From assembly GCF_014651635.1 (NCBI RefSeq), contig NZ_BMXG01000006.1:62001-126000 (forward strand): DNA of 64,000 nucleotides, written 5' to 3'. A program made the translations under genes and the position numbers. The DNA is from Cerasicoccus arenae. Lineage in GTDB: Bacteria; Verrucomicrobiota; Verrucomicrobiia; Opitutales; Cerasicoccaceae. Under the pieces are notes generated by a model. It saw only the letters and a program-made list of their open reading frames with translations, did no database searches and was not told where the DNA came from. This document shows positions 53,637-55,646 of the stretch, piece by piece (position 1 is the first letter of the stretch; each line of letters begins with the position of its first letter).

Positions 53637-55646
53637 ATGAGTAATCCAACTCCTGACCAACACCTTTTAGACCTGCGAGCAGCTATTCGCCATCACGACG
53701 AATTGTATTATCGGCAGGCGACACCGGAAATTTCGGATCGTGAATACGACGTCTTGAAAGAGAAATTGGCTCAGTTGGAGTTCTTTGCGGACGCTCAGGC
53801 GGAGCCGTCCCCCACCAAGACAGTGGGCGATGACCGGACGGAGGGTTTTCGCAAAATTAAACACCGGCAGCCGATGCTCTCGCTCGATAATACTTACAGC
53901 GAGGATGAACTGCGTGCCTTCCATGCTCGTTTGCTTAAGCAGTTCGATGAAGGGACGGATCTGGAATACGTGGTGGAGCCAAAGATTGACGGAGTTGCCG
54001 TTAGCGTGACCTACAAAAACGGCAAGCTTACCCAGGCGATCACACGCGGTAATGGTGCCGAAGGTGATGACATTACGCGCAACTTACTCGAAGGCGTCCC
54101 GAGCCTGCCTCGAGAGCTTAACGACGCCCCGGAACTAATCGAAATTCGCGGCGAAATTTACATGACGGCAGAGGAGTTTTTGCGTATCAACACCGAGCGC
54201 GAAGAAAGCGGCCTGCCGATGTTCGCCAACCCACGTAACTTGACTGCTGGGACGATCAAACAACTCAACGGCGTTGCCGGTCGACGGTTGGAGATTGTCC
54301 TCTACGGCGTGGGTTTTTGTCAGCCGAATCGTTTCACCGCGCAAAGCGATTTGCACGAGGCCGTGCGCAAATGGAATTTGCCGACCATCGAAAAATACTG
54401 GTGTGTGCACAGCATCGACGAGGTGTGGGCGGCGATTGAAGAGCTGGACGAATTGCGCCACGATTTCGCGTATGGAACCGATGGCGCTGTCGTGAAACTT
54501 AATAGCTTTGCAATGCAAAGTGAGGTTGGTATGACTAGTAAGGCACCACGCTGGGCGATCGCTTACAAGTTCGAGTCCGAACAGGCCGAGACCTTGCTTG
54601 AGAAAATCGATGTGCAGATTGGGCGGACGGGTGTTGTGACTCCTGTGGCGCATCTGACGCCGGTATTGTTAGCGGGAAGCACGGTCTCTCGTGCGACCTT
54701 GCACAACGAAGACGAGATTAAGCGGAAGGACATTCGCCCTGGTGATACCGTAGTCGTTCAGAAGGCGGGTGAGATTATTCCCCAAGTTCTGAGTGTGGTG
54801 CTGGCCAAGCGTCCAGCCGACAGCCAACCCTTTGACTTCAGGGAGTTACTAACCAAGTTAGATATTCAGGCAGAGCGTGTGCCCGGCCAGGTTGCTTGGC
54901 GGCTGACCGATCAGGACGATCCGATTCAGCAGCGCCGTCGATTAAAGCACTACTCTTCAAAGCAGTGTTTGGACATTGAGAACTTGGGCGAGTCAGTGGT
55001 CGACCAACTGGTGACGGCGGGCTTGGTGAATGACCCTGCCGACCTTTACGGATTGACCGAGTCGCAGCTTCTTGAGCTAGAGCGCTTTGGCGAGCGTTCG
55101 GCTAGCAATCTAGTCAATGCCATCGAGCAAAGTAAAAAGGCGGAATTCTGGCGATTGCTGCACGCGCTGGGCATCCCGCATGTCGGTAAACAAAGCGCGA
55201 AAGACCTAGCCCAGCATTTTGGTTCACTTGATGCGCTGATGGAGGCTGATGAAGCGACGTTGGAGGCAGTCGACGGTATTGGCGGCATTATGGCACAGTC
55301 GATTTGCAGCTTTTTTGTGGACGATGCTAACCGCGCACTGATCCTCCGTTTGCGAGAAGCCGGGGTCAACGTGACGCTGTTGTCAGCAGAGCAAAAACCG
55401 CACGTTAATAGCGAAGGCGCTTTTGTCGGCAAGACTGTTGTATTGACGGGCTCCTTGCCGAACCTTAGCCGTGAAGAGGCCACGGCGATGATCGAGCAAG
55501 CGGGTGGCAAGACGAGTGGCTCGGTCAGCAAGAAGACAGATTATGTTTTGGCCGGAGATGCGGCTGGCAGCAAACTGACCAAAGCCGAAAAGCTTGGCGT
55601 CCATATCCTGGACGAAGCGGCCTTTCGTGAATTGATAGGCGATTGA
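53637..55646 (+). CDS. ligA: NAD-dependent DNA ligase LigA lacking zinc-finger cysteines
   Basis: A 669-residue DNA ligase that seals nicks during replication and repair. Domain Ia starts with HHDELYYRQ; the adenylation Lys is in [11 protein letters not shown] (Lys about 116); the OB domain, helix-hairpin-helix repeats and a C-terminal BRCT domain (about 590-669) follow. In the usual position of the four-cysteine zinc finger (about residues 398-432) no Cys is present: the region reads [12 protein letters not shown] where other LigA have a Cys-rich WRCPNPxCPAQ. The frame is unbroken and no Cys codon is seen in other frames there, so this looks like true loss. It is otherwise a normal LigA length. 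Confidence 0.95.

What the first reader, a model, noticed from the sequence alone, without database searches (positions are those of the whole stretch)
54829..54935. LigA without the zinc-finger cysteines
NAD-dependent DNA ligases normally bind zinc through four cysteines between the OB and helix-hairpin-helix domains (Cys408, 411, 426 and 432 in the E. coli enzyme). Here the same region contains no Cys at all; the WR.....PxQ frame of the motif is still recognisable ([12 protein letters not shown]), so it is substitution rather than deletion. Adenylation Lys, helix-hairpin-helix and BRCT parts are intact and the gene appears to be the housekeeping copy. Either the fold is stabilised in another way or the clade has moved away from zinc.
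Basis: partly seen in the sequence, partly recalled or inferred. Interest (0 to 1): 0.6.

Follow-up and report, generated by a model that had tools for sequence, protein, structure and literature searches.

The report
Essential DNA ligase rebuilt without zinc
A group of bacteria has replaced the zinc-binding cysteines of its only detected DNA-joining enzyme with a conserved, apparently metal-free core, and other zinc-binding proteins of its DNA-copying and protein-making machinery have lost zinc sites too, which suggests long adaptation to scarce zinc.

Summary
The window's LigA (53637-55646 +, 669 aa) is the only LigA found in its genome. Its four zinc cysteines are Leu405, Leu408, Leu423 and Asp428. 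This is neither error nor decay: in the same order 75 LigA genes from five families (f1, f3, f11, f20, f21) have none of the four cysteines, 53 others read have all four, none is intermediate. The replacement is specific: positions 1 and 3 aliphatic in 75 of 75, Arg414 and Arg434 invariant. AlphaFold2 puts a short helix where the CPxC knuckle was and keeps E. coli LigA's OB-finger-HhH arrangement (Z 29.5). A genus in another class (f42) lost the zinc site separately (one clade rejected, p-AU 0.0002) and has a similar module. Zinc sites are missing elsewhere: DnaG has lost at least three of four ligands in 37 of 40 order genomes, L36 is the zinc-free type in 18 of 18. Metal content and activity are untested; whether the order lost LigA zinc once or more is open. 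A Wolbachia LigA without the zinc domain is already in print.

The parts
53637..55646 (+). LigA, NAD-dependent DNA ligase, 669 aa, only copy found in the genome
53982..53984 (+). Lys116 of the KxDG adenylation motif
54588..54821 (+). OB-fold domain (PF03120), residues 318-395
54829..54935 (+). region of the zinc finger, residues 398-433, without any cysteine
54837..54857 (+). predicted helix 401-407 that takes the place of the start of the CPxC knuckle
   Evidence: prediction
54849..54851 (+). Leu405 at the position of E. coli Cys408
54858..54860 (+). Leu408 at the position of E. coli Cys411
54876..54878 (+). Arg414, invariant in 75 of 75 zinc-less LigA of the order
54903..54905 (+). Leu423 at the position of E. 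coli Cys426
54918..54920 (+). Asp428 at the position of E. coli Cys432
54936..54938 (+). Arg434, invariant in 75 of 75 zinc-less LigA of the order
55152..55343 (+). helix-hairpin-helix domain (PF12826), residues 506-569
55413..55637 (+). BRCT domain (PF00533), residues 593-667

Best explanation
This is the housekeeping LigA. The Cys4 zinc finger that braces the OB fold against the helix-hairpin-helix domain has been rebuilt as a metal-free mini-domain: the CPxC knuckle became the end of a short helix with the pattern Leu-x-x-Leu-Gly-Ile, the third cysteine became Leu, Ile or Val, the fourth mostly a polar residue, and Arg414 and Arg434 became fixed. A small hydrophobic core, perhaps with Arg-Asp contacts, then does the bracing that zinc did. 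Shown: the substitutions, their uniformity in five families, the conserved replacement pattern, a separate case in another class with a similar module, and a predicted fold that superposes on zinc-bearing LigA. Inferred: that no metal binds, that the enzyme works normally, and that the driver was long-term zinc economy, because DnaG, L36 and L31 of the clade have lost zinc ligands as well.
For: 75 zero-Cys and 53 four-Cys LigA genes in the order, no intermediate. C1 is L/V/I and C3 is L/I/V in 75 of 75; C2 is L in 62 of 75; Arg414 and Arg434 75 of 75 (34 and 31 of 53 in four-Cys members). Single LigA and no PF01068 in the own genome. Fragment 318-590: pLDDT 88.7, pTM 0.76, helix 401-407, strands 412-414 and 421-423, helix 429-440; Z 29.5, rmsd 2.8 over 263 residues against 2owo. 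f42: six of six genes read have C/L or I/I/H with LGI and AWRI and do not form one clade with the order's zinc-less genes (p-AU 0.0002). DnaG: 37 of 40 order genomes without the zinc ligands C1, H and C4, 9 of 9 outside the order canonical. L36: zinc-free type in 18 of 18 order genomes, cysteines replaced in 2 of 2 f42 genomes, zinc form in f49. The finger's role of holding OB and HhH in place is from PMC5052709 (passages).
Against: No metal or activity was measured. The module's structure is a prediction made with 11 homologues that carry zinc cysteines; the full-length model has pTM only 0.52, and against other LigA crystal forms the fragment gives Z 21-25 at rmsd 6.7-7.2, which I take as domain movement. 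Free trees do not join the zinc-less families (3 to 6 changes; starred branches force at least 2). f42 keeps zinc ligands in DnaG, so zinc loss there is not general. RpoC, RecR, UvrA, tRNA synthetases and most ribosomal proteins were not examined. The zinc-economy motive has no habitat evidence.
Confidence: 0.75

Rival explanations
1. The finger is dispensable and decays neutrally: after the cysteines were lost the region drifts, and OB and HhH are held by the rest of the protein.
For: A Wolbachia LigA reported to lack the zinc domain is active in vitro (PMC3397958). Position 4 and several other columns vary; f20 members vary in length here.
Against: Positions 1 and 3 aliphatic, R414 and R434 invariant, A412 74 of 75, G409 69 of 75 across five families; f42 shows a similar pattern separately.
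Confidence: 0.1
2. The module binds a metal through other residues (Asp, Asn, His or backbone), or binds zinc with fewer ligands.
For: Asp/Asn at position 4 in 49 of 75; f42 has Cys at position 1 and His at position 4.
Against: Three of the four positions are aliphatic in most order members, and no conserved Cys or His set exists within 398-434.
Confidence: 0.06
3. The driver is avoidance of cysteine oxidation or metal poisoning rather than zinc scarcity.
For: The same substitutions would also remove reactive cysteine clusters (inference).
Against: Cysteines elsewhere in this LigA remain, and the third DnaG cysteine is kept alone in 32 of the 37 altered DnaG; L36 is of the kind known from zinc saving (PMC6103462, passages).
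Confidence: 0.12
4. Artefact, pseudogene or accessory ligase, with a normal zinc LigA elsewhere.
For: Some f21 genomes do have a second, 4-Cys LigA.
Against: Complete open frame; same state in all 10 family members read; one LigA in the own genome. The assembly is 97.6% complete, so a missed copy is possible but unlikely.
Confidence: 0.02

Closest known systems
Canonical LigA (E. coli, PDB 2owo; TIGR00575, NF005932)
   Same: Adenylation, OB, HhH and BRCT domains, catalytic motifs and predicted arrangement
   Different: All four zinc cysteines replaced; no PF03119 match
Wolbachia (B. malayi) LigA, reported without the tetracysteine domain (PMC3397958)
   Same: LigA with BRCT, reported without zinc finger, active in vitro
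   Different: Endosymbiont and a single case; the paper infers deletion from domain analysis. I could not read its sequence, and domain models miss intact fingers (27 of 33 PF03119-negative genomes read outside the order have four cysteines)
E. coli LigB
   Same: NAD ligase with an incomplete zinc site (lacks two of four cysteines; PMC5507437, one passage)
   Different: LigB lacks BRCT and is a second ligase; this one has BRCT and is the only LigA found
Zinc-free (C-) ribosomal protein variants under Zur (PMC6103462, passages)
   Same: Zinc-binding cysteines replaced in a structural site
   Different: Those are mostly second, zinc-regulated copies; here L36 has one copy per genome and DNA replication proteins are affected

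Membership tests
NAD-dependent DNA ligase LigA | Full-length family model score | tested here: met
   NF005932 767 bits (cut-off 369), TIGR00575 723.6 (444.45)
NAD-dependent DNA ligase LigA | KxDG adenylation motif and nucleotidyltransferase motifs | tested here: met
NAD-dependent DNA ligase LigA | N-terminal NAD-binding domain Ia | tested here: inconclusive
   PF22745 20.8 bits, below its cut-off 27
NAD-dependent DNA ligase LigA | OB, HhH and BRCT domains | tested here: met
   PF03120, PF12826, PF00533 over cut-off
NAD-dependent DNA ligase LigA | Cys4 zinc finger (PF03119) | tested here: not met
   no match; zero of four cysteines. This is the departure reported; the finger is absent in a minority of accepted LigA/LigB proteins too, so it is treated as a variant of LigA
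NAD-dependent DNA ligase LigA | NAD+-dependent nick sealing | not testable with these tools
   no experiment
LigB | Score over the LigB model; no BRCT | tested here: not met
   NF005987 206.7 bits, cut-off 498; BRCT present
ATP-dependent DNA ligase | PF01068 core | tested here: not met
   not among the Pfam matches of this protein; none elsewhere in the genome

The most novel reading that the evidence does not exclude
One bacterial order has been removing zinc step by step from core replication and translation proteins: zinc-free-type L36 in every sampled genome, a DnaG primase ribbon without its ligands in most families, and a metal-free LigA in five families. A genus in another class lost the LigA and L36 sites separately and reached a similar LigA module. 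Primase and ligase, which start and finish each Okazaki fragment, would then run without structural zinc, so two textbook zinc sites can be rebuilt as metal-free folds.
Probability: 0.55. Interest if true: 0.75.

Novelty: new variant of a known kind. Interest (0 to 1): 0.6.

Why it matters
The Cys4 finger is listed as a standard part of LigA. A natural set of 75 zinc-less and 53 zinc-bearing genes in one order, plus a separate case in another class, allows a direct test of what the zinc does and which residues can replace it. The accompanying changes in DnaG and L36 point to zinc saving in core proteins, beyond the known switch to zinc-free ribosomal paralogues. It also shows that a missing PF03119 match cannot be read as zinc loss without looking at the residues.

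Tried and rejected
Second LigA or ATP ligase in the own genome: none found. Displaced cysteines: none seen within the module in the 75 homologues. PF03119 absence as a proxy for zinc loss: rejected. Outside the order I read 33 genomes without a PF03119 match; 27 have four cysteines and the other six are f42; G085 in the order is also missed by PF03119 but has four cysteines. The Caulobacter control is not among those that match. Shared origin of f42 and the order's zinc-less LigA: rejected. Viral origin: the three viral-contig homologues long enough to read have four cysteines; in the phage collection 1273 records match, all under 60% identity, and I did not read their finger regions. Single loss within the order: free trees need 3 to 6 changes and starred branches force at least 2, yet constrained trees are as good or better; left open. 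Canonical DnaG of three f14 genomes sits inside the order: several losses or a reacquisition, left open. Second PF01807 matches (L247, L248, L300) were set aside from the DnaG count and L249, L250, L301 could not be aligned; L300 (G034, f26) is a second primase-like protein with CHCC. Ten literature searches listed no paper on zinc-less LigA or DnaG in Verrucomicrobiota; only open-licence papers are held and lists were capped. The window's other genes scanned (20 of the ORFs) gave nothing that bears on zinc.

Full report
CHECK. The gene is a complete LigA (window 53637-55646 +, 669 aa), over the curated cut-offs of two LigA models. Pfam finds adenylation, OB, HhH and BRCT domains and no zinc-finger domain. 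Against E. coli LigA (2owo) the zinc positions Cys408/411/426/432 correspond to Leu405, Leu408, Leu423 and Asp428. The genome (97.6% complete, 63 contigs) has one LigA and no PF01068 match. The five nucleotidyltransferase motifs looked at are intact.

EXTENT. In the order, PF03119 matches 161 of 273 genomes and LigA 254 of 273. I read the finger region of 197 distinct LigA genes from all sources, after dropping 15 rows (11 duplicates, 4 without the region). In the order, 75 genes have zero of the four cysteines (f11 29, f20 18, f21 16, f1 10, f3 2) and 53 have all four; none of the 197 has two or three. In f21, three further genes with four cysteines are divergent second copies (L043, L134, L140). 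About half of the LigA-bearing genomes of the order were not read at the site.

REPLACEMENT. In the 75 genes position 1 is L 70, V 3, I 2; position 2 is L 62, R 5, K 3, Q 2, M 2, A 1; position 3 is L 39, I 28, V 8; position 4 is D 35, N 14, R 12 and others. Arg414 and Arg434 are invariant (34 and 31 of 53 in four-Cys order members); Ala412 is kept in 74, Gly409 in 69, Trp421 in 65. This looks like a selected module, not decay. AlphaFold2 on the window protein with 11 homologues gave mean pLDDT 81.5 and pTM 0.52; the fragment 318-590 gave 88.7 and 0.76, with helix 401-407, strands 412-414 and 421-423 and helix 429-440. The homologues in that alignment carry the cysteines, so the helix rests on the query's own sequence. 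The fragment superposes on 2owo with Z 29.5, rmsd 2.8 over 263 residues; on other LigA crystal forms Z is 21-25 at rmsd 6.7-7.2, as expected if the domains move. The finger is described as holding OB and HhH in position (PMC5052709, passages) and as bridging them (PMC10504179, passages).

HISTORY. Trees left out residues 400-436. Free quick trees scatter the zinc-less families (5, 6, 4 and 3 changes; starred branches force at least 2). Trees that hold them together are as good or better: lnL 14.8 higher (p-AU 0.72), 2.85 lower (p-AU 0.48), 12.8 higher for LigA and DnaG joined (p-AU 0.73). One loss in the order is possible and simple, but not shown. Over the phylum (335 genomes at 90% completeness or more) PF03119 matches 236 and LigA 330. 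Of 33 PF03119-negative genomes read outside the order, 27 have four cysteines. The six others, of seven f42/g114 genomes in the sample, keep Cys at position 1 and have L or I, I and H at positions 2 to 4, within LGI/IGI and EVAWRI. f42 lies next to zinc-bearing f49 (support 99), and one clade with the order's zinc-less genes is rejected (dlnL 361, p-AU 0.0002). A similar module therefore arose at least twice.

ZINC ELSEWHERE. The DnaG zinc ribbon (CHCC) was read in 40 order genomes; G027 had no match. In 37 the first Cys is Ser, the His is another residue and the last Cys is Ser or Thr; the third is still Cys in 32 and Asp in 5 (all four f1 genomes and G040). The three canonical ones (G022, G127, G180) are in f14, where two others are altered. 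Nine of nine genomes outside the order are CHCC, both f42 genomes included. Set aside were second PF01807 proteins (L247, L248, and L300 with CHCC). L36 has one copy in each of 18 order genomes and is the 41-residue type with at most two of four ligand positions as Cys; that this is the zinc-free type known from E. coli is recalled. Both f42 genomes have a 38-residue L36 without cysteines; f49 has the zinc form. L31 beside L36 in the own genome and in one f11 genome lacks the CxxC pattern (canonical pattern recalled). Zinc-free ribosomal paralogues are a known zinc-saving device (PMC6103462, passages). DnaG changes are more widespread than LigA changes; that they are older is inference, and the nested position of canonical f14 DnaG complicates it.

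KNOWN CASES. A Wolbachia LigA was reported without the zinc domain and active in vitro (PMC3397958; abstract, passages and Discussion seen); I could not read its sequence. LigB lacks two of the cysteines and the BRCT-like domain (PMC5507437, one passage). DnaG's zinc domain is described as having highly conserved three Cys and one His (PMC6163395, passages). Ten searches of an open-licence library listed nothing on this clade.

VERDICT. Absence of metal, normal activity and zinc scarcity as the cause remain inferred.

Noticed in passing
own genome G000 contig C25 25839-26120 (L244); L226-L246, L272-L299: DnaG primase has lost its zinc ligands in 37 of 40 order genomes (SPF..EKTPSF...(C/D)(F/Y)S(S/T)); canonical in three f14 genomes and in 9 of 9 outside the order.
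   Followed up: partly
own genome G000 contig C25, L244 about 2522-2550: The own DnaG reading frame breaks near codon 375; tblastn with a same-genus DnaG finds two pieces in different frames. Assembly error or real, not settled.
   Followed up: no
own genome G000 contig C2 29625-30435 (L302 9625-10435): L36 and L31 of zinc-free type lie side by side, with L28 divergent next to them, like the zinc-saving ribosomal gene clusters of other bacteria (PMC6103462, passages).
   Followed up: partly
L261, L265 (f42 genomes G344, G274): The f42 L36 is a 38-residue form in which the cysteines are replaced (KISADD, VIN/VVN), unlike its sister f49.
   Followed up: partly
L043, L134, L140 (f21), L138 (f14): A divergent second LigA with four cysteines in some f21 and f14 genomes; the four group together in the tree (L140 on a very long branch).
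   Followed up: no
L171-L199 (f41, f46, f67 and others of the phylum): Main LigA hits only about 30% identical to the window's, with four cysteines that PF03119 mostly misses.
   Followed up: no
window 55659-61685 -: A 2008-aa ORF next to ligA, convergent with it, with a Cys-Gly-x-x-Glu-Gln-like CTEQ motif as in alpha-2-macroglobulin-like proteins (reading from the sequence; no family scan).
   Followed up: no
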